IMG/VR virus record: IMGVR_UViG_3300023223_001870
Span: 1 to 30,195 of that record
DNA: 30,195 nt
Reading direction: 5' to 3' (one strand)
Source: a virus
Of the stretch, positions 2-26,612 are shown piece by piece. The notes beneath the pieces are model-generated. The model did not search any database and was not told the DNA's origin. It saw nothing but the letters and a program-made list of their open reading frames with translations. The position numbers and the translations under genes were made by a program. Positions within the stretch are counted from its first letter, which is position 1; each line of letters begins with the position of its first letter.

Positions 2-940
2 CTTAAAGAATTATCAGAATCAGCACGCTTTAAGCGAATCGAAAACTATAAAAAGCCTGTTCCCTATTTACTTTCAGCTCAATGGGTAATGTCCTCAGCT
101 GTTAAGTGGGGTGTCAAGCATCCTCTATTTGTATCCAAAGCCCTCGGTGAATTTCCAAAGGATCACGACGATGTAATTGTGAAATGGAGTGAAGTTGAAA
201 CGGCGCAAGCGAGACAGATTGAATTTGGTAAGCATCGTTATATCGGAGTTGATGTTGCTCGCTTTGGTGAAGATGCTACTGTCATTACTGAATTTTTAGG
301 GGACAAACAAACAGGTTACCAAGGCATGCATAAACGTGATTCGACTCATGTCACGGGGGAAGTAATCAACTGGCTTAAAAAAGAAAATTACGGTTTACCA
401 ACAACACTCGTTATAGATGAAACAGGTATTGGTGGAGCGATAGTTGATAATTTATTGGAAAAGCAATACGCTAATATAATTGGTAAGCATATTGAGATAA
501 TTGGAATTCATTTTTCAGCATCTCCTAGTGTGGAAAAAGTTAATCCGACGCCTAGCGAAAAGAAACAGTCGGAAGAGGATCGACGAGATTATGTAAATTT
601 AAAGGCAAAAATTTTCTGTCTTTTGGGGAATGATTTAAAAGAAAGGCTAAATATACTTGACGATTCAATTTATCTATCTCAACTTACTAATATACGCTTT
701 AAATATACGAGCGCGGGGAAAATTCAAATTGAGTCAAAAGCTGAGTACAAAACGCGAACCAGTCAAGGTTCGCCGGACGAGGCAGACTCAATGGCAATAG
801 CTAATTATGGACGCTATTTGCAGGGGGCATATGGGACATATGAAAAATATAAACCTACGAAACCCTATTCCAAACGTAAGGAGCGCGATCGTAAGGGAGT
901 TGCCGGTGTCCGGTCCCGAATCAAAATTAAGGAGTGCTAA
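2..940 (+). CDS. Terminase large subunit, C-terminal part (5' truncated by window)
   Basis: The reading frame is open from base 2, so the N-terminal ATPase part lies outside the window; the ATG at 89 is internal. The visible 312 residues carry the RNase H-like nuclease domain of TerL, which cuts concatemeric DNA during packaging into the prohead. The three acidic positions expected of this fold are visible: GVDVARFGEDATV (Asp codon at 251), LVIDETGIGG (Asp codon at 416) and SPDEADSMA (Asp codon at 785). The stop codon overlaps the next start by one base (TAATG), fitting the usual terminase-portal order. Family assignment is firm; the packaging mechanism (cos, pac or Mu-like headful) cannot be read from this domain. 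Confidence 0.9.
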   Translation, partial: LKELSESARFKRIENYKKPVPYLLSAQWVMSSAVKWGVKHPLFVSKALGEFPKDHDDVIVKWSEVETAQARQIEFGKHRYIGVDVARFGEDATVITEFLGDKQTGYQGMHKRDSTHVTGEVINWLKKENYGLPTTLVIDETGIGGAIVDNLLEKQYANIIGKHIEIIGIHFSASPSVEKVNPTPSEKKQSEEDRRDYVNLKAKIFCLLGNDLKERLNILDDSIYLSQLTNIRFKYTSAGKIQIESKAEYKTRTSQGSPDEADSMAIANYGRYLQGAYGTYEKYKPTKPYSKRKERDRKGVAGVRSRIKIKEC

Positions 941-3498
941 TGGCCGTAGGTAGAAACTTAATTGTAAACAGAACACCCTTTGGTAAATCAGGCACTGATA
1001 TCAGTAGTTTTGTTTATGTTGAGGATCATATTACTTCCTTGCATGGACCTGAGGCGGCAATTTTTTTCAACAAGATGTATCGGTCCGATGCTCAAGTCAA
1101 AAAATTAATCGCCGCAATTGTAGGACCGATTAAATCTGGCAAGTGGGAGATCGAGTCTGCAAGCGACGACAAGGTAGATTTAGAACACGCCGCTTTAATG
1201 CAACAAATTCTTTTCAAAGACATTAGTTGGTCAAAATTTATGGGTGAGGTGACGACATTCCCCCGGTTGGGACATGCAATATTTGAAGTAATAAATGAAA
1301 ACAGAGAGCACCCTGATTTTGGAATGTATTCGGGTTTAGCGCAACTAGCATTCCGTCACCAAACAACAATTGAAGAATGGCATCACGATGGTAAGACTGG
1401 TTGCTTGGAACGGATTAGGCAACGTCAAACAGGCGACGTTGATTTTGATGTATTCATTCCCGCCGATGTACTTTTAATTTTTTATAATGAGCAAGAGGGA
1501 GATAACAACGGACTCAGTTTACTTAGACCAATGTTTGGGGCTTATAGACGAAAACTTCTAGCGCTCGAGCTACAAATAATTGGAATAGAACGTTTCGCAA
1601 TTCCCACCCCAATCGTAGGTGTCCCACAGAAAATAAAAACAAGTGATAAGGAATACATCGAAGCTAAAAGAGCGATTGAACGATTCACGAGTTCTGAGGA
1701 TGCTCATATCATGAAACCCGAAGGGTGGACGCTCGAGCTATTTGCCAATAACTATGATCCACAAAAAGTTCAAACATTTATTAAAGCGCAAGACGAGGCA
1801 ATGGCCGGTTCCGTTGTTGCAACATTCCTAGAACTAGGCACGGGAGGTAATGCCGGAGCATTTGCTTTAGCTCGTGATCTATCAGATTTCTTTTTAGACG
1901 GTATTGAATATTTTGCTCACATTATTGAGGACACAATTAATACGCGCCTTATTCCTCACCTAATGCGGCTTAATTTTGGGGACCGCGTACCTGTCTTACC
2001 AATGTTAAAGCATTCCAATATTTCAGATAAAGCAGGTAAGGAGTTAATGGAAATTATCACAGGTTACACTGCTAGCGGGGTAATACAAACAGACGAAGCT
2101 CTTGAGGATCACGTTCGTAAGGTACATAATTTACCTAAAAAAGCGGAGGGTACTCAAATTGAAAACCAAGAATCAAAAACTGACCCCGATCCAAATGCAA
2201 CAGAAACAGAAAATGTTGACAATGTGGACGAGCTTACTGATATACGTACTGATCGTAGCGGCCCTATTGATACTACCGGAAATGTTAACTTAAAAATAAA
2301 ACTTGCAATTAACACAGTTACAGATGATCGAAATCACGTTCACTTAGATAGTGTTGGAAATGATACAAGTGGGGCATTTACTGATACTGAACGTGAACCT
2401 GAAATGCATGCCCATGATATTTTAGATGAGGCAGGTGAGATAGTTAGCAGGACTTCATTCGATGCTTTTGGTGAGGGGCACACTCACCAAGATTTAACTG
2501 GTACAACAGGTCCTCCAGAGGAAATAGATTTAGGCGGGCATCCTGTAAGGCGACGCCGTAGGAAAACAAAAAAGGAAGAGGAGGAAATGCGTCGTCGGCA
2601 ACGAAAGTTATCGATTAAGAATCCTAGGACTGCAAAAGAATTAATTATAAATGGGCAGAATAGAGTCACTGTTCTTATGCGAGAAAATTTAAATTTTATT
2701 AAAGATAAGTATATCGCCGATATCATGCGAAATTACAGACAACTTCCAGATAAACAGAAACTCAATGCCATAAACAAAGTTACCCCTGGGGGTACAGCAA
2801 AATTTAGGCGCTCCCTTTCAGCACTCTATACTCAGATTGCAAATGAGTCTTTGGAAATGGCTCGAGGTGAAGTTCCTAGTAAGAGCACTGTAAAGTTAAA
2901 AGATAAACCAGCATTAATAAAATATTTAAATCCTAAGGGTGAAATAAAACTTCAAGAAAATAGAAAACTCCCTACTCGAATTCAAATTTTGGTGGCAAGG
3001 CAAGCAGAAAAAGTACAAGAGAAATACACAAATGATTTAGCCGATCGTGCAGCATTTCAGTTTGTAACAACAGAATCTAGCACGAATGATCCTGCACTGA
3101 TTGAGCAGGATTTAAATCGTGCCAGTGATGAATTAATAGAAGGTGGAAATATTGATCGAGCTGCAGCTAATTCTTCGGCTTTAATTGTGAACGATGCGCG
3201 TAATGAATTTTTCTTTGATGAGGAGGTACTAGAGGACATTCAGAGTTTTACTTTTATTAACTTTGATCCAAAGAGTGCCATATGCAGAAAACTTTCAGCT
3301 AATGGTACGGGTAGAACTTTTGCAACAAATGATGCTGAGTTTTTACGCTTTAGTCCTCCACTACACCACAATTGTAAATCTTATTTACGGGCTAACTTAG
3401 CGACGACCACAAATGTACCTGAGATACAACCACTCCCTGGGATTTCTCAAGCCGAGCGTGATAGCATTACACTTAGTAGTAAAGAGGGGTTCAAATGA
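940..3498 (+). CDS. Portal protein (Mu gp29/DUF935-like) fused to a MuF-like head morphogenesis domain
   Basis: An 852-residue protein from ATG 940, preceded by AAGGAG five bases upstream; a GTG at 934 lies inside that ribosome site and is less likely. The N-terminal ~400 residues resemble the Mu gp29-type portal, which forms the DNA channel at the head vertex. The C-terminal ~250 residues resemble the Mu gpF/SPP1 gp7 minor head protein, with a Cys pair near the end (Cys782 in ICRKL and Cys812 in LHHNC). Mu encodes these as two genes, so this is a fusion. Between them lies a linker with three His-x-His motifs at 466-468, 490-492 and 514-516, followed by a very basic/acidic stretch at about 540-560. 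Its stop overlaps the next start by four bases. Confidence 0.85.
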   Translation: MAVGRNLIVNRTPFGKSGTDISSFVYVEDHITSLHGPEAAIFFNKMYRSDAQVKKLIAAIVGPIKSGKWEIESASDDKVDLEHAALMQQILFKDISWSKFMGEVTTFPRLGHAIFEVINENREHPDFGMYSGLAQLAFRHQTTIEEWHHDGKTGCLERIRQRQTGDVDFDVFIPADVLLIFYNEQEGDNNGLSLLRPMFGAYRRKLLALELQIIGIERFAIPTPIVGVPQKIKTSDKEYIEAKRAIERFTSSEDAHIMKPEGWTLELFANNYDPQKVQTFIKAQDEAMAGSVVATFLELGTGGNAGAFALARDLSDFFLDGIEYFAHIIEDTINTRLIPHLMRLNFGDRVPVLPMLKHSNISDKAGKELMEIITGYTASGVIQTDEALEDHVRKVHNLPKKAEGTQIENQESKTDPDPNATETENVDNVDELTDIRTDRSGPIDTTGNVNLKIKLAINTVTDDRNHVHLDSVGNDTSGAFTDTEREPEMHAHDILDEAGEIVSRTSFDAFGEGHTHQDLTGTTGPPEEIDLGGHPVRRRRRKTKKEEEEMRRRQRKLSIKNPRTAKELIINGQNRVTVLMRENLNFIKDKYIADIMRNYRQLPDKQKLNAINKVTPGGTAKFRRSLSALYTQIANESLEMARGEVPSKSTVKLKDKPALIKYLNPKGEIKLQENRKLPTRIQILVARQAEKVQEKYTNDLADRAAFQFVTTESSTNDPALIEQDLNRASDELIEGGNIDRAAANSSALIVNDARNEFFFDEEVLEDIQSFTFINFDPKSAICRKLSANGTGRTFATNDAEFLRFSPPLHHNCKSYLRANLATTTNVPEIQPLPGISQAERDSITLSSKEGFK
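2335..2487 (+). other. Histidine-rich segment with three HxH motifs at 24-residue period
   Basis: Codons at 2335-2343 give HVH, 2407-2415 give HAH and 2479-2487 give HTH, each 72 bases after the last. The motifs sit in the linker between the portal and MuF-like parts of the fusion protein. HxH motifs bind metal in some phage fibre and spike tips, so metal binding is an inference only. Confidence 0.8.
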
Positions 3499-4760
3499 TT
3501 AGTTTAAATATGATTAAAGGCTTATTAGTAGAGCAGGGTTTGTTTGAAACTGAGGCAGACGTTGAGCAGTTTTTGCAAGAGGAAAACATAGGCCAAAGTA
3601 CAATCATACAAACTCTTATATTTGATAAGACTGTATTTGAAACGGCAGGTGAGGCAGTTGAGTGGGCACGAACTCATGGTTTTGGTGCTGATAAGATCGA
3701 TGAAACAGACGATTCTTTTCGTATCAGGCAAATGGATCCAAGTGAATTCCAACCAGACTCGTTTCGAACGATTGATATCCGTCGAGGGGTATCGGCGGTA
3801 ATTGGTAGACCAAGAGAAATACAAGCAGAGGTTCCGTTCTTTTTTGGGTCAATGAGAAACCCAGAGGAGATTAAGTTATCGGCCGACCTTCCACACATTA
3901 TTGAAATAGCAAGAGTGGTAGATGGCATACATCCTCAATTCGGTCCAATAATACTAACGACTAAAACGTTAGAAAGTTTTAAAAAGAATTTTGATGAAAG
4001 AGTAGTTGGCGTTGATCTAAGTATTGACTACGACCATGAGCAACGTGAGGCAGCTGCATGGGTTCGGGAGTTATTCTTAAGTGAAGACGGGCAAATACTT
4101 TTTGGAGTAGTAAGGTGGACACCGGGAGGCGCTAAAACATTAAGCGACCGTGAATTCCGGTACTTTTCTCCAATGTATTCATTAAACTGGCAACACCCAC
4201 ATACTCAGGAGTTTCATGGCCCGACGCTCACTGGGGGTGCGCTAGTTAACAGTCCATTTTTAAAAATGGATGCCATTGTAGGGCTAAAAATGAAAAATAG
4301 TGAGGGAAATGCAATGGAGACTATTAAATTAGATGACCATAATTCAAAAGTCCTCAAGTTAAATGAGGACTTGCAAGGAGCACAATTGTCATTATCGACT
4401 CTTCAAAAAGAATCGAAGTTAGCAATTGATGGGCTCAAAAGCGATAATATAAACCTGTCTAGTAAAGTTACTGAATTAGAATCGGCAGCGAAAAAGCGGG
4501 ATCAAGATCAAGTGCATGAGAAATTGTTTCGAGAAAACAAGATCAACAAAGCCCAACTTACCGCGCTTAAAGACGGAAAATCAATGCTAGAAATACTGGC
4601 TTTATCTGAAAAGATGAATACTAACCCACAAGGTGGCGATGGTAGTGTTGATAAAGACTTTATTCTAAGCGCCGATGAAAAGAAAATGTGTAAGACTCTT
4701 AGTTTAACGGAAGAGGAGTACATAAAATATAATACGAATATAGACGAGGGGGGCAGGTAA
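3495..4760 (+). CDS. Prohead protease (Mu I-like) with XkdF-like N-terminus and C-terminal scaffold
   Basis: A 421-residue protein with three parts. Residues ~35-110 resemble the N-terminal region of XkdF-type phage proteases (pattern EAVEWARTHGF, IDET, FRTIDIRRGV). Residues ~140-270 resemble the Mu gpI protease: VDLSIDYDHEQ, WTPGGAKTL and YRYFSP-like EFRYFSPMYSL. Residues ~274-421 are charged and helical, rich in Lys, Glu and Leu, as expected of an internal scaffold. The protein would shape the prohead and then cleave the scaffold during maturation. The start overlaps the portal stop (ATGA), with AGAGGGG upstream. An in-frame ATG at 4314 may give the scaffold alone. Function is well supported by family patterns and by its place just before the decoration and capsid genes. 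Confidence 0.85.
   Translation: MISLNMIKGLLVEQGLFETEADVEQFLQEENIGQSTIIQTLIFDKTVFETAGEAVEWARTHGFGADKIDETDDSFRIRQMDPSEFQPDSFRTIDIRRGVSAVIGRPREIQAEVPFFFGSMRNPEEIKLSADLPHIIEIARVVDGIHPQFGPIILTTKTLESFKKNFDERVVGVDLSIDYDHEQREAAAWVRELFLSEDGQILFGVVRWTPGGAKTLSDREFRYFSPMYSLNWQHPHTQEFHGPTLTGGALVNSPFLKMDAIVGLKMKNSEGNAMETIKLDDHNSKVLKLNEDLQGAQLSLSTLQKESKLAIDGLKSDNINLSSKVTELESAAKKRDQDQVHEKLFRENKINKAQLTALKDGKSMLEILALSEKMNTNPQGGDGSVDKDFILSADEKKMCKTLSLTEEEYIKYNTNIDEGGR
4314..4760 (+). CDS. Candidate internally initiated scaffold protein (same frame as protease)
   Basis: The ATG at 4314 is codon 274 of the protease gene and is preceded by GAGGG at 4302-4306 with seven bases between. Translation from it gives 148 residues (starting METIKLDDHN), covering exactly the charged helical scaffold-like region and excluding the protease domain. 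Mu (I/Z) and lambda (C/Nu3) make their scaffolds this way. The ribosome site and domain boundary are visible; use of this start is inferred. Confidence 0.5.
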   Translation: METIKLDDHNSKVLKLNEDLQGAQLSLSTLQKESKLAIDGLKSDNINLSSKVTELESAAKKRDQDQVHEKLFRENKINKAQLTALKDGKSMLEILALSEKMNTNPQGGDGSVDKDFILSADEKKMCKTLSLTEEEYIKYNTNIDEGGR

Positions 4761-5182
4761 TGGCCGCTTTAACAGACGATATTGAAGTGTTGATGCAAGA
4801 AGGTAAGTTGCAGGGGTTTCCAGTAGTTGCTTCGGATATTATTTTCCGTGGGGCACTAGTAAAACATAATGCAGCTGGCTTTCTTGAACCATGCTCAGCT
4901 GAAGCAGGGGCTACTTTTGCAGGTCTAGCATTTGAAAGAATAGATAACTCTAGTGGGGCAGCAGGGGATCTTGTTGTACGAGTTACCAGAAATGGAATGC
5001 ATCTTTTAACAGGTGCTGCGTTTACGCAAGCCGATATCGGGGAGCAAGTTTTTGCATCCGACGATCAAACTGTAAGTACTACTCAAGGTGCCAACGAACA
5101 ATTAGTTGGTACAATAATTCGATTAGAATCCGCAACGCAAATTTGGGTTGATATCGAACACGCCGTATCACTAGGCATATAA
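4760..5182 (+). CDS. Probable head decoration / capsid-stabilising protein
   Basis: A small 140-residue protein, rich in Ala and Gly with short beta-type stretches, directly between the protease/scaffold and major capsid genes. That is where lambda gpD-like or DUF2190-like decoration proteins are encoded. Features such as RGALVKHNAAGFLEP and FAGLAFERIDNSSG resemble that class, in which a trimer or monomer clamps the mature shell. Its start overlaps the previous stop by one base (TAATG) after GAGGGGGGC. The assignment rests on size, composition and gene order more than on a diagnostic motif. Confidence 0.65.
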   Translation: MAALTDDIEVLMQEGKLQGFPVVASDIIFRGALVKHNAAGFLEPCSAEAGATFAGLAFERIDNSSGAAGDLVVRVTRNGMHLLTGAAFTQADIGEQVFASDDQTVSTTQGANEQLVGTIIRLESATQIWVDIEHAVSLGI

Positions 5183-5202
5183 TATAGAAAGGAGTTTTGA
5201 TC

Positions 5203-6105
5203 ATGGGACAAATTACTAATGCAATTTTAATTGAACGTGGTTTACGAGCCAATTTTATGAAGGCTTTTAATAACGGTGAACGTGTTCAAGATATTATGCC
5301 TTTTGTTATGGTTGTTAGATCCACCAACAAAGATGAAAAATACGGTTGGTTGGGTGAATCGCCTGTAATGGAAGAGTGGATTGATGAGCGTAAACTCAGA
5401 GGAATAAACGACTTTGAATTTACCATCGTCAACAGAGATTACGAGGCTACTCTGAAAGTAGATCGTAACTTTAGGGACGATGATCAATTGGGTGCTGTAC
5501 AAGTTAGGATTCGGGATCTAGCTAGCAAAGCTAGGCAGCATCCTAGGAAACTGTTCTTTGAGACACTTGTTGATGGGGCAACTGAACTTGGTTACGATGG
5601 TGTGACTTTTTTCAATGCTTCTCACTTAGAATCAGGAGTTGCTCAATCGAACTTATTCACTGGTACTTCGACTGGACCTTATACAGTTGCAGAATTTAGT
5701 GCGGATTTCGAGGGATCACGAGCTGACATGAGGCAATTTACCGACGACATTGGGGAACCGAGGAATGAAGGTGAATTGGATCTTTGGACAGTTGCGGGAC
5801 CGGATGTTGAGCCTGTTATTGATAAGATTCTGGGCGCAGACATTATCAATAACACGACTAACACTCTGAAAGGTGCAGCTAAGAAATTAATCACTTCACG
5901 CTTAACTGGTGAGGATTGGTATTTGATTAATGCCGGGGGTGAAATTAAACCATTCATTATGCAGGAGCGTAAAGCCATTGAATTTAGATCTCTAGATGAA
6001 AATTCAGAGGGCGGATTCATGCGTAAGGAATTACTGTTCGGAGTTGATTACCGAATCGGGTTTAGTTTCGGTGTTTGGTACAAAGCAATCAAAATCGATA
6101 ACTAA
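5203..6105 (+). CDS. Major capsid protein (Mu gpT-like)
   Basis: A 300-residue protein resembling the Mu gpT-type major head subunit, visible in YGWLGESPVMEEW, the following LRGINDFEFTIVNRDYEA segment and DGVTFFNASH. It would form the icosahedral shell with an HK97-like fold. ATG 5203 is chosen because AAAGGAG at 5188-5194 lies eight bases upstream; an in-frame TTG at 5197 is too close to that site. The strong ribosome site and the terminator just downstream fit a highly expressed structural gene. No N-terminal delta domain is apparent, which fits having a separate scaffold in the preceding gene. Confidence 0.9.
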   Translation: MGQITNAILIERGLRANFMKAFNNGERVQDIMPFVMVVRSTNKDEKYGWLGESPVMEEWIDERKLRGINDFEFTIVNRDYEATLKVDRNFRDDDQLGAVQVRIRDLASKARQHPRKLFFETLVDGATELGYDGVTFFNASHLESGVAQSNLFTGTSTGPYTVAEFSADFEGSRADMRQFTDDIGEPRNEGELDLWTVAGPDVEPVIDKILGADIINNTTNTLKGAAKKLITSRLTGEDWYLINAGGEIKPFIMQERKAIEFRSLDENSEGGFMRKELLFGVDYRIGFSFGVWYKAIKIDN

Positions 6106-7459: not shown

Positions 7460-9382
7460 ATGTCAAAGGTAACGGTAAAAGAAGGAGCAGCTCCTATTAC
7501 ACCTGGAACGGGTGAAGTTACAATTTTTGCTAAAACAGATAAAGATTTATATATTAAAGATGATACCGGCGCTGAAACAAATTTAACAAATACAACTGGT
7601 ACAGATAACGATGCGATCCACGATAATGTTGCAGCAGAAATTTCAGCAATTTCGGAAAAGGTAACACCAGTTAGTGCGGATCTTGTAATTATCGAAGACA
7701 GTGCAGCGGCCAATGCTAAAAAGAAAGTGCAGGTTGGAAATTTACCGGTCAGTGGAACAGCGGGTGGGGATTTAAATGGAACTTATCCTAATCCACTTAT
7801 AGATGATGGTGCTGATTCAACTGCAATTCACGACAACGTATCAGCGGAAATTAGTGCAGTAACTGAAAAAGTTACGCCCGTAAATGCCGATCTTGTAATT
7901 ATCGAGGACTCTGCTGCAGCCAATGCTAAAAAGAGAGTACAAGTTGGAAACTTACCAGTAAGTGGTGCGGCTGGTGGTGATTTAGGGGGCACCTATCCTA
8001 ATCCAACAGTAAATGATGGTGCTGATTCTACGGCAATTCATGATAATGTGTCAGCAGAAATTTCAGTACTTACTGAGAAAGTTACTCCTGTGAGCGCAGA
8101 CCTCGTAATTATAGAGGACAGCGCGGCCGCTAATGCAAAGAAAAAAGCACAGGTAGGTAATTTACCTGCGACTGATTCAAATGCAATTCACGACAACGTA
8201 TCAGCGGAAATTAGCGTAATAACGGAAAAGGCAACACCTATAAGCGCAGACTTAGTAATTATAGAGGACAGTGCCGCAGGTAATGTTAAGAAAAAAATAC
8301 AGATAGGAAATATACCTGTTGCTGTTACAGATGCTGATGCAATTCACGACAACGTTGCGAACGAAATAAGCGTCGTGACGGAAAAGACAGTTCCAATAGG
8401 CGGTGATTTTTTACTTCTAGAGGACACGGCAGATTCTAATAATAAAAAAAGAGTAAAGATAGAAAATTTACCCACTGGCGCAGACGTCGACGCAATCCAT
8501 GACAATGTTGCTGCAGAAATTTCAGTAATAACGGAAAAACCACTTCCAGTTAACGCTGATCTAGTAATCATCGAGGACAGCGCCGCTGCTAACGTTAAAA
8601 AAAGAGTACAAGTTGGTAACCTACCGGTTAGCGGAACGGCCGGTGGGGATTTAAACGGAACTTATCCTAACCCATTGGTTAATGATGGCGCCGATGCTAC
8701 GGCAATTCATGATAATGTTGCATCTGAGATCAGTACTATCACAGAAAAAGTCACGCCGGTTACCAGTGACTTTATAATTATCGAGGATAGCGCAGCCGCT
8801 AATGTTAAAAAAAGAGCGCAGCTTGGAAATTTACCAGGCACTGGTACAGATGCCGATGCGATACATGATAACGTTGCAGCGGAAATAAGTGCCATAGCAG
8901 AAAAAACTTCTCCGGTTAATGCCGATCTCATAGTGATTGAAGATAGTGCAGCAGCTAATGTTAAGAAAAAAGTTCAGGTAGGTAACCTGCCTAACGCCAC
9001 ATTTGGTTCTTCATTTGACGAAGACGATAGTGAAGCAGTGAGTTCTACAACTTCGAGTGCGTTTGTAGAAAAATTAAAATTTACAACGGCCTCACTAACC
9101 TTAGGAACTTATATCTTGTTTTGGTATTTTGAGATAAGACCAGTAACAAGTGACAAAGAATTTGAAACTCAAATTGAGGATAATGATATAACTCTTTTAT
9201 CCTCTGTCGGTTTTGCACCTAAATTACTTACTTCGGGTTTAGGTTTTATATCCGGAGGTGGATTCAAACGATTACCTTCTCTATCAGGGGTTCATGATTT
9301 TGATTTAGATTTTAGATCACCCGATGGAGTGGCAACAATAGAAATTAAAAAGGCTAGATTTTTACTTTGGAGGCAATCATAA
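7460..9382 (+). CDS. Repeat-containing fibre protein, probably head fibre
   Basis: A 640-residue protein from ATG 7460, preceded by GGGGGG. After a ~50-residue N-terminal region come eight tandem units, each beginning AIHDNV and ending near (V/I)xNLP. Units 1, 2 and 6 are longer because they carry GGDLxGTYPNP, a motif well known from phage fibre proteins. The last ~125 residues form a distinct beta-rich domain ending ARFLLWRQS, likely a jelly-roll tip. A trimeric fibre made of repeated shaft units is the likely structure. Because the gene lies between the capsid and connector genes, a head fibre or shell-attached appendage is more likely than a tail fibre, but this is inferred. The stop overlaps the next start by one base. 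Confidence 0.75.
   Translation: MSKVTVKEGAAPITPGTGEVTIFAKTDKDLYIKDDTGAETNLTNTTGTDNDAIHDNVAAEISAISEKVTPVSADLVIIEDSAAANAKKKVQVGNLPVSGTAGGDLNGTYPNPLIDDGADSTAIHDNVSAEISAVTEKVTPVNADLVIIEDSAAANAKKRVQVGNLPVSGAAGGDLGGTYPNPTVNDGADSTAIHDNVSAEISVLTEKVTPVSADLVIIEDSAAANAKKKAQVGNLPATDSNAIHDNVSAEISVITEKATPISADLVIIEDSAAGNVKKKIQIGNIPVAVTDADAIHDNVANEISVVTEKTVPIGGDFLLLEDTADSNNKKRVKIENLPTGADVDAIHDNVAAEISVITEKPLPVNADLVIIEDSAAANVKKRVQVGNLPVSGTAGGDLNGTYPNPLVNDGADATAIHDNVASEISTITEKVTPVTSDFIIIEDSAAANVKKRAQLGNLPGTGTDADAIHDNVAAEISAIAEKTSPVNADLIVIEDSAAANVKKKVQVGNLPNATFGSSFDEDDSEAVSSTTSSAFVEKLKFTTASLTLGTYILFWYFEIRPVTSDKEFETQIEDNDITLLSSVGFAPKLLTSGLGFISGGGFKRLPSLSGVHDFDLDFRSPDGVATIEIKKARFLLWRQS
7613..8992 (+). repeat. Eight tandem protein-coding repeats within fibre gene
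   Basis: Units start at each AIHDNV block. Core pattern: AIHDNVxxEISxxxEK, then P(V/I)xxD and IIEDSAAAN(A/V)KKK. Five units are about 50-52 residues; three carry an extra ~18-20 residues with GGDLxGTYPNP. The protein is strongly conserved between units while many codons differ. Confidence 0.9.
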
Positions 9383-13102: not shown

Positions 13103-13130
13103 ATAATAATTCTTTTCTAAAGTTTGGCAA
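13103..13130 (-). promoter_or_regulatory. Candidate promoter for the antisense gene
   Basis: On the minus strand, TTGCCA (13130-13125) and TATTAT (13108-13103) are separated by 16 bases; each matches five of six sigma70 consensus positions. The expected start of transcription is near 13096, about 20 bases before the ATG at 13074. Confidence 0.55.
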
Positions 13131-13156
13131 TAACTATAATGAGATTAGGAGTAACA

Positions 13157-13564
13157 ATGGGCATTAGTGCTAAAGATTTAAATCCACTACCAAGTAGTTT
13201 TTTGATTGGTAAAAAAGAATACAAAATGCGTGACTGTGATTTGCTTTTTGAAATCTGGGCGCATGAAAAGTTTTCTACACCTGAAGAAACAAATGGTCTT
13301 ATTGCTTTTAGTAGACTAGCAAGCGATCTCAGTAAACCTAAACCAATTTTACAAGCGGCATATCACTTACTTGTCGACGATAGTGATTTTGCAAATGAAG
13401 AGGATTTTATAATCCAAATAGGTAAGCGAGCGGGAGTTGGTAAAAAATATTATACACTAAATGGTATCTACCAAGCAATGGCTAGAAGTTTTGGTTTAAG
13501 CCAACCATTAATGGATGAGATTGCAGAGGATCAAGAACTAAAAAAGCAAGTGGCGGCAGTGTAA
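13157..13564 (+). CDS. Tail assembly chaperone (G-like)
   Basis: A 135-residue protein placed between the major tail and tape-measure genes, the position of lambda gpG-type chaperones, which coat the tape measure during tail assembly. ATG 13157 is chosen because AGGAG at 13147-13151 lies five bases upstream; earlier in-frame TTG (13124) and ATG (13139) lack such a site. The core is helical (CDLLFEIWAHEKF, GLIAFSRLASDL, NGIYQAMARSFGLSQPL). Six codons from its end is A AAA AAG (13540-13546), which permits a -1 shift into the following open frame to make the longer GT product. Confidence 0.8.
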   Translation: MGISAKDLNPLPSSFLIGKKEYKMRDCDLLFEIWAHEKFSTPEETNGLIAFSRLASDLSKPKPILQAAYHLLVDDSDFANEEDFIIQIGKRAGVGKKYYTLNGIYQAMARSFGLSQPLMDEIAEDQELKKQVAAV

Positions 13565-13932
13565 GCGAGAGCGAAAATTACGCTGAATTATTTGACATTG
13601 TCGCGAATAGATACGGATGGGATTTAAATACATTTTACAGCTTAACTAGGAGGAAGCTTCGGTACATAACAAAAGCAATTAGAAAAAATAAAAGGATTGA
13701 GTTGGAAAATTTGGCGGCAATCAACGGTAAGAAATTAAAGCCCTCACCAATGGACAGTCCTTTAAATCTAACTAGCGACGAACGTAAAGAAGCTGATAGA
13801 CAAGCTAAAAAAATGTTAGAGCGAATGAAAACGCGTGCGTTTGAAAAAGAGAGATTGCAAAAAAGACTCGATATAGAAGCGGACGCTCAAAGAAGGGCAA
13901 CTAAAGGTGGTAACTCAAGAACTACTAATTAG
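13157..13932 (+). CDS. Tail assembly chaperone GT fusion by -1 frameshift
   Basis: Joining 13157-13546 with 13546-13932 gives a 258-residue protein: 130 residues shared with the G-like chaperone, then 128 residues in the -1 frame. The T part opens with ENYAELFDIVANRYGWDL and SLTRRKLRYITKAI, a pattern typical of chaperone T domains, and ends with a highly charged helix (roughly residues 200-250) that may contact the tape measure. No good independent start exists for the T frame: a TTG at 13702 has no ribosome site and would omit the T-domain core. In lambda and many siphophages a minor fraction of ribosomes makes this fusion and the ratio matters for tail assembly. Confidence 0.8.
13540..13546 (+). 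other. Slippery heptamer for programmed -1 frameshift
   Basis: A AAA AAG is in the right register: the zero-frame codons are CTA AAA AAG (13538-13546). A -1 slip re-enters at GCA (13546) in a frame open to 13932. A weak stem (AGCG 13570-13573 with CGCT 13581-13584) lies downstream, too far to be a clear stimulator. Confidence 0.8.
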
Positions 13933-23583: not shown

Positions 23584-23721
23584 ATGGGAGAAACTTTAAC
23601 TTTAGTTCTAGCAGCATTGTGGGCAATTTCCGAAGTGCTAACTATATTTCCAGGTGTAAAAGCCAATGGGATATTCCAACTTGTTGTTAATATATTAAAA
23701 ACTGTAATGGGCAAGGGGTAG
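23584..23721 (+). CDS. Very small hydrophobic protein (holin-like candidate)
   Basis: A 45-residue protein with a strong ribosome site (AAGGAGGG, four bases before the ATG). It has a hydrophobic N-terminal segment (TLTLVLAALWAISEVLTIF), then a second amphipathic stretch (GIFQLVVNILKTVMG). Small proteins with this pattern occur next to phage endolysins and are often taken as holins, but proof of that is not in the sequence. Its stop overlaps the following GTG start (TAGTG), so it is translated as part of a tight unit with the next membrane protein. Its strong start signal suggests higher expression than its neighbours. Confidence 0.6.
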   Translation: MGETLTLVLAALWAISEVLTIFPGVKANGIFQLVVNILKTVMGKG

Positions 23722-24071
23722 TGGGACGAGCCCTTGCTAGCATTGCTGTAAAACTTTTATTACCAAAGCTAATGGTTTGGATCGGTACGTGGCTACCGTT
23801 TCTAGCGGCCGGTCCCATTGGTTGGGTCGTACGATTCGTCGTGGGGCTTATAGCAGAAAAACTTTTAGTACTTTTATTTACTGAGGGTGAACACCAAGTG
23901 AAAATTTTAGGAATTAAATTAGAGGTAAGAAGGGAACATAGGGAATATGCTTTTGCTTATCAAAAATATTTAGATTCTATTTCGCTACCAGACGTTACTA
24001 GAAAGGAAAAGAAAAATGCAGAGAAAGTACTCGACCTGGCTTTTGATCAATATGTCATTATTGATCTCTAG
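23721..24071 (+). CDS. Membrane protein of the lysis block
   Basis: A 116-residue protein beginning at GTG 23721, directly coupled to the preceding stop; AAGGGG is only two to three bases upstream, so translation likely depends on coupling. Residues ~5-55 are nearly all hydrophobic and could form two membrane helices separated by a GPIG turn; residues ~56-116 are charged and helical. It could be a holin with a soluble tail or a partner of the lipoprotein encoded next, whose start lies 56 bases inside this gene in another frame, recalling the overlapping Rz/Rz1 layout. It lacks the single-TM-plus-long-coil form of a classical inner-membrane spanin. Confidence 0.6.
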   Translation: MGRALASIAVKLLLPKLMVWIGTWLPFLAAGPIGWVVRFVVGLIAEKLLVLLFTEGEHQVKILGIKLEVRREHREYAFAYQKYLDSISLPDVTRKEKKNAEKVLDLAFDQYVIIDL

Positions 24072-24324
24072 TTGCGCAACAGTCATACCTAATGTTGAAA
24101 TCTGTCATGATCGGAATACCACGGCTCATTGTACCAAAATAGTAACGCGTGAGTCTCGGGAGGATCTCAATTGGGGAATAAACCGATTGGGGCGTTTTAG
24201 TATTTCTGCAGAGCACTGGGGAGATATGAAAATTTTCATTGAATCAGTTTGTGAACGCACTAAGTGTTCAACGGATGCTATCAAAAAGACTTTGGAAAAA
24301 ATTGAATCAAAAGAATCGGATTAA
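24016..24324 (+). CDS. Outer-membrane-type lipoprotein of the lysis block
   Basis: A 102-residue protein with a lipoprotein signal: basic start MQRK, hydrophobic core and lipobox ISSC with the acylated Cys at position 20. The mature part is soluble and charged with three further Cys residues (ICHDRNTTAHC, VCERTKC), so disulphides are possible. AAGGA lies about nine bases upstream. It starts inside the previous gene in a different frame. A lipoprotein in a lysis cassette suggests an o-spanin-like role, linking or fusing the outer membrane, although it is longer than a typical Rz1 and not Pro-rich. Its presence supports a Gram-negative host. Confidence 0.65.
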   Translation: MQRKYSTWLLINMSLLISSCATVIPNVEICHDRNTTAHCTKIVTRESREDLNWGINRLGRFSISAEHWGDMKIFIESVCERTKCSTDAIKKTLEKIESKESD

Positions 24325-24326
24325 CT

Positions 24327-24476
24327 ATGTATCTAAATATAAGCGCTGTTTTATATGGTTATCACAGAGAAAATTGGTATTTCGAAGTACCTAAAAAATA
24401 TTTTAAAAGTATGGCAAAAGTAAATGATATACATATTATTGAACAAATTTGGGCAATAGAAAATGGATTAGGTTAA
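24327..24476 (+). CDS. Small hypothetical protein at convergent junction
   Basis: A possible 49-residue gene from ATG 24327 just after the lipoprotein stop, rich in Tyr, Trp and Ile (LYGYHRENWYFEVPKKYF). The ribosome site is weak (CGGA six bases upstream). Its last four bases overlap the end of the nuclease gene on the other strand, so the two operons converge without space. No family is recognised; composition looks like a real protein, but it could be chance. Confidence 0.4.
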   Translation: MYLNISAVLYGYHRENWYFEVPKKYFKSMAKVNDIHIIEQIWAIENGLG

Positions 24477-24805
24477 AACTCACTCCCATCCGTATTCCAC
24501 TTCCAACTCAGTTGTTTACTCATTGCAGTAAGAATCCCCTTAATTCGTCCCCAGTTGTGGGGCCTCACCACGAATGCGGTGCCTCCGGCCTTGCGAATTC
24601 TACTTAGTTTAATTTCTTGCAATGGACTAACCGTGCCATTATCCGTTTTGTATTCTAACCAAACGGGAACTCCATTCACGACGGCGGAAACATCCGGTGT
24701 CCCCCTTATATTTCTTTGAGATATGGATTCATAAAAGGTATTGGGTAGGGTTTTTAGGAAGGGGTAAGTGCTTTCTCGAAAGACTGTCTCAGGTTTTTTG
24801 GCCAT
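24473..24805 (-). CDS. VRR-NUC-type nuclease (PD-(D/E)xK fold)
   Basis: A 110-residue protein with the compact VRR-NUC pattern: Glu11, then RGTPDVSAVVNGVPVWLEYK containing Asp38 and the Glu51-x-Lys53 pair, then Gln63 after SP, and GGTAFVVRP. Small phage proteins of this type act as structure-specific (junction or nick) nucleases in replication and recombination. It is last in the leftward operon and begins 52 bases inside the polymerase reading frame. All active-site residues expected for this fold are present, so this gene looks intact even though the polymerase before it is not. Confidence 0.85.
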   Translation of the reverse strand: MAKKPETVFRESTYPFLKTLPNTFYESISQRNIRGTPDVSAVVNGVPVWLEYKTDNGTVSPLQEIKLSRIRKAGGTAFVVRPHNWGRIKGILTAMSKQLSWKWNTDGSEF

Positions 24806-26452
24806 GGTTTTTTATCCGCCCAGGATCTTTCAGAATAATCGACACTGCAGGTAAGTGGTAAGTACTTAAACTTATAAGCAGACTCCATGATTTTGGTAAT
24901 ATGATAGATTAAACCTTCAGTTATAAATTCTGTTTCAAAAAGTATTTCGTCGTGAATTTGCAGGAGCATTTGAGTATGTGGAAAATGCTCTTTCAACATT
25001 GCAAATAAATTTACCATCGCAAGTTTTACTACATCGGCGCAACCTCCAGCAATTAACATATTCGGTGCAAAATAGGCTCTATCTCTTGGAATTAAAACCC
25101 GCCTACCAAACCAATTTATAATGTAACCGCGCTTGCTTGCTTGAGCCTGAATACCTTGAATTAATTTTCTCACTTTGGGGAGTTTAGCAAAATAGAGTCG
25201 TCGCAATTCAGTCGCTTCTTTTACAGATACTCCAAGGTCGGCAGCAAGTTTTGCGTTTCCGCCACCGTACAACAACATGAAGTTAATTTTTTTAGCAGGA
25301 GTTCTTGGTACTCCCATTAATTCCCCACAAGCAGTGTGTACATCAATCCCATTAACCACTTGCTCTATTACTTTCATCTCTCCCGCGTAATCAAGCATGA
25401 GTTTATATTCCATTTGATCATAATCAACCATGAGGAATGTATGTCCATAGCGTGGAATAAATGCCCTACGTACGATTGAGGCATCGTCCTCAAGGTCCAA
25501 ATTTTCTACTTTCGTTACGTTTTGCAGGGTGATCTTTATCGGCTAACTCTAAGTAATTTCGATAATAAGTGTGCGCTAATTTATAGTTTTTTCGATACCT
25601 AAATAAGGTATCTATTACGGGATGTTTTATTCCTTTGAGTGAGGTTTTGGAGAAACTAGGATTGCCTTTTTCCGTGGTGGGATACTTTAAATCATTGGCA
25701 TCAAAAAGGGGTTTGTAGAATGCCGGTGAGTCAGAAAACTCCCTCCCAGCATACTCTTCTAATTTTTTACGGGCGCTGAGGGCATTCTCGTGCGTCAAAT
25801 TAAACTGTGATTTTATATAGGTACGGTCAACTGCAATACCGCGCTTCTCCATATGGAATAGTACTTTGGTGAGTTTCATCTCATTGTGAGCAACTTGCTG
25901 AATAGTATTGTAGTTTTTGGCATTAGGCAGCAATTTTAAGCCCTCGTCCACCATCTGCATTTGCTTAATTTGGTAAGTGCCTAATTTTAAGGTTGCATTA
26001 CCTCAATTGGGACTTGCGCATAAAAACTCCTCCGATGCTTTTTCTTTTTCCCTGGGATTTCCTTTTCCACATATAATTTATGTTTAGAAATATATTTTTC
26101 TACATGATCATATTTTTGGGCACCTACAATGGGAGCCAAATATTTAAGTCCATAACGAAAGAGTCTATTATCGACGAGTCGGTGCATTGCCATTGTACAG
26201 TGAATTCTGCATTGGATATCCACACCACTAGTTCCCAACATGTGCCAATCAAATTTAGCATTATGCATAAAAATGGTTTTAGTCTTATCATTAAGTAACC
26301 TACAGAATATGACAATCCGAGTATGTTGCAATAATAACTGAGAATAATTTATCCCCTAAGTATGCATGCAGTCCCGTAGTCTCAGTATCTAAGGCAATAA
26401 AATCATGTTTACATATTTCCTCAATCGCTTTTTGGGGGTTTTTTACTAGCAT
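24754..26452 (-). pseudogene. Broken family A DNA polymerase (PolA-like with 3'-5' exonuclease domain)
   Basis: Four consecutive frames together resemble one DNA polymerase I. They are 26452-26300 (50 aa from ATG 26452, with GAGGG upstream; exo I motif ALDTETTGL), 26331-25987 (exo II, MHNAKFDW), about 26005-25490 (thumb region) and 25500-24754 (palm: motif A VDYDQMEYKL, motif B RTPAKKINFMLLYGGG, motif C QIHDEILFE). At each join material expected in the family is absent. The exo I to exo II distance is short. After VPIEVMQP no Asp codon exists for exo III. The TGR segment before LQNV is gone. No fragment except the first has a convincing ribosome site. Polymerase motifs are otherwise well preserved, so the damage is recent or an assembly artefact. 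Confidence 0.8.
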
Positions 26453-26612
26453 TAGCCCTCAGTTTGTCAATCCATTCATCAACATAACTTGAGACTGTAT
26501 GCCCCAACTTTCGCGCTTTACGCTGCAACCATCGCTTATTAATTGGTTTTACCCTAGCATACAAAATGCTTGTTGCTCTCGCTCGCTTTTCAGGTAGTTC
26601 TATTTTATCCAT
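26421..26612 (-). CDS. Small ribbon-helix-helix-like protein
   Basis: A 63-residue basic protein with a strand-helix-helix pattern (ATSILYARVKPINKRWLQRK, then HTVSSYVDEWIDKLR), as in small phage DNA-binding regulators. Its start is one base after the stop of the preceding gene and it has no clear ribosome site of its own, so coupling is likely. Its last 32 bases overlap the start of the polymerase gene (ATG 26452), whose ribosome site lies within it. A regulatory or replication-accessory role is inferred only from fold pattern and operon position. Confidence 0.6.
   Translation of the reverse strand: MDKIELPEKRARATSILYARVKPINKRWLQRKARKLGHTVSSYVDEWIDKLRANASKKPPKSD

What the first reader, a model, noticed from the sequence alone, without database searches (positions are those of the whole stretch)
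24754..26452. Family A DNA polymerase gene split by three frame changes, with exo III and TGR motifs missing
The gene reads as exo I, exo II, thumb and palm pieces in four successive frames. At the second join (around 25985-26005) no Asp codon exists in any frame where exo III (YxxxD) should be; at the third (25500-25535) the TGR segment before LQNV is absent; at the first (26300-26331) the exo I to exo II spacing is much shorter than usual. Motifs A, B and C are intact and the neighbouring genes are unbroken, so this is not general sequence error. Options are recent inactivating deletions, an assembly artefact, or an unusual expression mechanism that restores missing sequence. If real, the phage would depend on a host or other polymerase.
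Basis: partly seen in the sequence, partly recalled or inferred. Interest (0 to 1): 0.65.

Follow-up and report, generated by a model that had tools for sequence, protein, structure and literature searches.

The report
Phage DNA polymerase with three deletions
An ordinary phage replication polymerase gene appears in this assembled sequence with three short pieces missing, which breaks the reading frame; this is most likely an assembly fault or a very recent loss, not a new way of expressing a gene.

Summary
On the minus strand, 26452 to 24754, a family A DNA polymerase gene (PHROG 17 / Pfam DNA_pol_A with an N-terminal 3'-5' exonuclease) reads in four successive frames. I found 18 relatives (35-44% identical over the joined pieces; 17 IMG/VR contigs, 1 bacterial MAG contig); all carry the gene in one uninterrupted frame. 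Against them the window lacks 28 nt at join 2 (same spacing in all 18; holds exo III YxxxD), 62-68 nt at join 3 (holds TGR) and 11-83 nt in the variable linker at join 1. The missing parts are nowhere else in the window, there is no second polymerase there, and internal starts lack a Shine-Dalgarno, so recoding or separate subunits cannot give a working enzyme. What remains is not decayed: 64 of 70 family-conserved positions are kept, within the relatives' range, and the pieces hold no stops. The neighbouring replication genes tested show no comparable losses. Two ordinary explanations remain: the contig is wrong here, or the deletions are real and very recent. The record has no near-identical sibling and no reads, so I cannot separate them; I lean slightly to an assembly or library fault. 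A mechanism that restores missing sequence is very unlikely.

The parts
26300..26452 (-). Piece 1: ATG start and exo I (DTETTGL) in frame 0; ends at a stop at 26302-26300
   Evidence: Pfam DNA_pol_A_exo1 weak match; GAGG Shine-Dalgarno-like site before the ATG
26299..26312 (-). Join 1: change from frame 0 to frame 1; 11-83 nt of a variable linker missing against relatives
25987..26331 (-). Piece 2: exo II (HNAKFD) to VPIEVMQP in frame 1
   Evidence: profile comparison with the relatives, probability 99.9, E 1e-31
25990..26003 (-). Join 2: change from frame 1 to frame 0; 28 nt missing, which hold exo III (YxxxD) in all 18 relatives
   Evidence: exo III position mapped on Klenow fragment
25490..26002 (-). 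Piece 3: end of the exonuclease domain and thumb in frame 0 (ORF with ATG from 25960)
   Evidence: profile comparison with the relatives, probability 99.7, E 1e-25
25525..25534 (-). Join 3: change from frame 0 to frame 1; 62-68 nt (usually 65) missing, which hold the TGR motif
   Evidence: TGR mapped on Taq and Klenow polymerases
24754..25527 (-). Piece 4: LQNV to the stop, palm and fingers with motifs A, B and C in frame 1
   Evidence: DNA_pol_A, 147 bits; PHROG 17, E 9e-47
26421..26612 (-). Small upstream ORF (63 aa) that overlaps the polymerase start by 32 nt; unbroken
24473..24805 (-). Downstream VRR-NUC-like nuclease gene that overlaps the polymerase end; unbroken

Best explanation
It is an ordinary phage family A DNA polymerase gene (exonuclease plus polymerase) whose sequence in this contig lacks three short stretches whose lengths are not multiples of three, so the reading frame breaks three times and the product would be a dead peptide of about 50 residues. 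Shown: the frames, the missing lengths against 18 intact relatives, the loss of exo III and TGR, and the absence of point decay. Inferred: the cause. I think it slightly more likely that the deletions arose in the library or the assembly (short contig ends or chimeric reads joined across locally weak or strain-mixed sequence) and that the real phage has an intact polymerase.
For: All 18 relatives are intact. The remaining sequence is as conserved as in functional relatives: 64 of 70 conserved columns kept (91.4%) against 83.5-98.8% in relatives, with no stops inside the pieces, so there was little or no time under relaxed selection. Three deletions sit in one gene with P about 0.0045 if placed at random, while tested neighbours have no comparable loss, which fits a local fault. 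The gene keeps its start, upstream Shine-Dalgarno-like site and overlaps with neighbours. No near-identical record supports the junctions. The benchmark PMC6350398 reports indels and local misassemblies as measurable in virome assemblies.
Against: The contig has no ambiguous bases, and k-mer assemblers normally need reads across a junction. The other genes look clean. Clustering in one gene is also what relaxed selection after a first real deletion would give. The pieces do not clearly come from different strains: the ranking of relatives correlates only weakly between pieces.
Confidence: 0.52

Rival explanations
1. The deletions are real. A phage or prophage lineage lost its polymerase very recently through successive short deletions, perhaps between short direct repeats; it is defective, or replicates with a host or helper polymerase.
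For: The contig reads cleanly through the joins with no ambiguous bases. Clustering in one gene fits relaxed selection after a first hit. At join 2 the two reading frames overlap by at least 7 nt that both look homologous to relatives, as expected if a short direct repeat flanked a 28-nt deletion. Microhomology deletions are known in phage populations (PMC10132644). Many tailed phages lack their own polymerase (abstract of PMC11348598).
Against: Three deletions but no nonsense mutation and no excess of changes at conserved sites. 0 of 18 relatives are broken. No other polymerase in the window. Neighbouring replication genes remain intact.
Confidence: 0.43
2. The polymerase is made as separate or recoded pieces: programmed frameshifts at the joins, or internal starts giving several subunits.
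For: Each piece is open and conserved. Separate exonuclease subunits of phage polymerases are annotated (PHROG 192).
Against: The product would still lack exo III and TGR, which are invariant in all 18 relatives. No Shine-Dalgarno was found at the first starts of pieces 2-4. The pieces break inside domains, not between them.
Confidence: 0.03
3. The missing stretches are put back at the RNA or DNA level (insertion editing, trans-splicing or programmed rearrangement).
For: Only that the rest of the gene looks conserved.
Against: No copy of the missing stretches in the window, no known RNA family there, relatives encode them in line, and I know of no such mechanism in DNA phages.
Confidence: 0.01

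Closest known systems
Intact family A DNA polymerases of uncultivated tailed phages (L003/L007, L008-L023, L030)
   Same: Same domain order, conserved motifs and replication-gene neighbourhood (SNF2 helicase, Pam3 gp33/gp34-like genes, VRR-NUC nuclease)
   Different: They have one uninterrupted frame of about 570-640 aa with exo III and TGR
E. coli DNA polymerase I Klenow fragment and Taq polymerase
   Same: Profile of the relatives aligns along the whole Klenow fragment, E 6e-96
   Different: The window's copy lacks the stretches that align to Klenow exo III and to TGRLS
divPolA1, a divergent phage PolA with a lost exonuclease (PMC11348598)
   Same: Exonuclease motif loss in a phage PolA
   Different: divPolA1 lost its catalytic aspartates by substitution and is said to keep polymerase residues; here a frame-breaking deletion removes exo III, and TGR is lost too

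Membership tests
Family A DNA polymerase (PF00476 / PHROG 17) | Sequence homology of the polymerase domain | tested here: met
   147 bits against a cut-off of 34.3 for piece 4; PHROG 17 E 9e-47
Family A DNA polymerase (PF00476 / PHROG 17) | Motifs A, B and C | tested here: met
   DYDQMEY, K..NFMLLYG and HDE in piece 4
Family A DNA polymerase (PF00476 / PHROG 17) | TGR motif before LQN | tested here: not met
   Missing at join 3; present in all 18 relatives
Family A DNA polymerase (PF00476 / PHROG 17) | One open frame that encodes the enzyme | tested here: not met
   Four frames, three breaks. It is a broken copy of such a gene, not a working member as written
DnaQ-like 3'-5' exonuclease domain (PF01612) | Exo I (DxE), exo II (NxxxD) and exo III (YxxxD) | tested here: not met
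   Exo I and II present; exo III missing at join 2
Pseudogene by real mutation | Inactivating changes fixed in real molecules | not testable with these tools
   Needs reads or PCR; no near-identical record was found
Assembly artefact | Junctions not supported by reads | not testable with these tools
   No reads are held

The most novel reading that the evidence does not exclude
A living phage lineage has just discarded its own replicative polymerase while keeping the rest of its replication genes, and replicates with a host or helper polymerase: a snapshot of polymerase loss in progress.
Probability: 0.12. Interest if true: 0.4.

Novelty: new member of a known kind. Interest (0 to 1): 0.13.

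Why it matters
If real, it would be a dated case of polymerase loss in a phage that keeps the rest of its replication genes, a step implied by the mix of phages with and without polymerases. If an artefact, it warns that multiple-of-three-free deletions can sit inside a single gene of an otherwise clean virus contig, so that a broken core gene in a singleton metagenome record should not be read as biology without reads.

Tried and rejected
Missing segments elsewhere in the window: none. Second polymerase in the window: none. Internal translation starts: no Shine-Dalgarno at the ones checked. Stable hairpins at the joins: only weak folds of about -7 to -11.5 kcal/mol over 81 nt, not tested against shuffles. 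Known RNA elements or tRNAs: none. Chimera of different strains: relatives rank similarly for pieces 2, 3 and 4 but weakly for piece 1; inconclusive on such short pieces. A CRISPR-escape origin of the deletions was considered from PMC10132644 but has no evidence here. In one search piece 3 was left out of the alignment by a script error; one search is the corrected one.

Full report
What is there. The window is a 30,195-base virus record. On its minus strand, from an ATG at 26452 to a stop at 24754, lies a family A DNA polymerase gene in four successive reading frames. Piece 1 carries exo I, piece 2 exo II, piece 3 the end of the exonuclease domain and the thumb, piece 4 the palm and fingers with motifs A, B and C. 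Pfam and PHROG matches support pieces 2, 3 and 4 strongly and piece 1 weakly.

Relatives. A search with piece 4 found L003 (47% identical in that stretch); searches with L003 and with an alignment reached further phage contigs and one contig in an Opitutia metagenome-assembled genome. I examined the 18 closest. Every one has the polymerase in a single uninterrupted frame of about 570-640 residues. Their profile aligns along the whole Klenow fragment of E. coli DNA polymerase I (E 6e-96), which places the family's YxxxD stretch on Klenow exo III and its TGR stretch on Klenow TGRLS (Taq).

How much is missing. A frame-aware alignment to L003 needs three frame changes, each beside a gap. Counting the nucleotides between fixed anchors in the window and in each relative gives 28 nt missing at join 2 in all 18 comparisons, 62-68 nt at join 3 (65 in most), and 11-83 nt at join 1. 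Join 1 falls in a linker that varies among relatives; L009 has a naturally short one, so the loss there may be small. Codon usage trained on the other genes of the window changes its preferred frame close to the same places.

What the deletions do. As written, translation from the ATG stops after 50 residues. Exo III and TGR are missing in every frame. They are not elsewhere in the window, and no second family A polymerase is present in it. No Shine-Dalgarno was found at the first starts of the later pieces, whereas most genes of the window and the polymerase's own ATG have one. Frameshifting or internal starts would therefore not give a normal enzyme. From established knowledge of these enzymes, exo III supplies a catalytic residue of proofreading and the TGR arginine contacts the primer-template, so a product without them should not work.

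Age of the damage. I compared columns that are at least 90% conserved among the relatives. The window keeps 64 of the 70 that remain (91.4%); leave-one-out values for intact relatives are 83.5-98.8%. It lacks 9 such columns altogether; no relative lacks any. The pieces contain no stops. So the gene was under normal constraint until very recently, or still is.

Surroundings. Neighbouring genes are those of the relatives: a SNF2-type helicase, Pam3 gp33- and gp34-like proteins and a VRR-NUC-like nuclease. The helicase part, the gp34-like gene and the nuclease show at most one missing conserved column. If three frame-breaking events fell at random over the window's genes, all three would share one gene with probability about 0.0045. 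Some local cause is needed: relaxed selection after a first real deletion, or a local fault in library or assembly.

Which cause. For an artefact: no point decay, no intermediate, all relatives intact, a record without a near-identical sibling. For real deletions: no ambiguous bases, clean neighbours, and at join 2 an overlap of at least 7 nt that both frames seem to use, as a short direct repeat flanking the deletion would leave. The intact form of this very gene is not known, so the repeat is an inference. Microhomology deletions are documented in phage populations (PMC10132644), and virome assemblies do contain indels and local misassemblies (PMC6350398). I give 0.52 to a fault and 0.43 to real recent deletions. 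Only reads or PCR can decide.

Verdict. The thing itself is ordinary: a broken copy of a common phage gene. The exotic option, restoration of missing sequence during expression, is about 1%.

Noticed in passing
L021:5001-6860 and L030:360-2210: Two relatives carry an insertion with two CxxC pairs (zinc-ribbon-like) between the LQN stretch and motif A of the polymerase; other relatives lack it.
   Followed up: no
L017:5001-6878: A relative with an insertion of about 40 residues after the motif B region of the polymerase.
   Followed up: no
L009:1154-2830: A relative with a naturally very short exo I to exo II linker, about 20 residues shorter than in most relatives.
   Followed up: partly
window 7460-9382: A 640-aa protein built of repeats of the type AIHDNVSAEIS...EKVTPVNADLVIIEDSAAANAKKRVQVGNLP.
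   Followed up: no
window 13124-13932: Two ORFs ahead of the tape-measure-like gene in the place where tail assembly chaperones joined by a frameshift are common; not tested for a slippery site.
   Followed up: no
window 23721-24324: Two overlapping ORFs behind an endolysin-like M15 peptidase; the second has a lipoprotein-like N-terminus (LLISSCA), as in spanin pairs.
   Followed up: no
window 934-6105: Portal, protease and major head genes are Mu-like (Portal_Mu, Mu-like_Pro, Mu-like_gpT), while the replication genes resemble those of cyanophage Pam3.
   Followed up: partly
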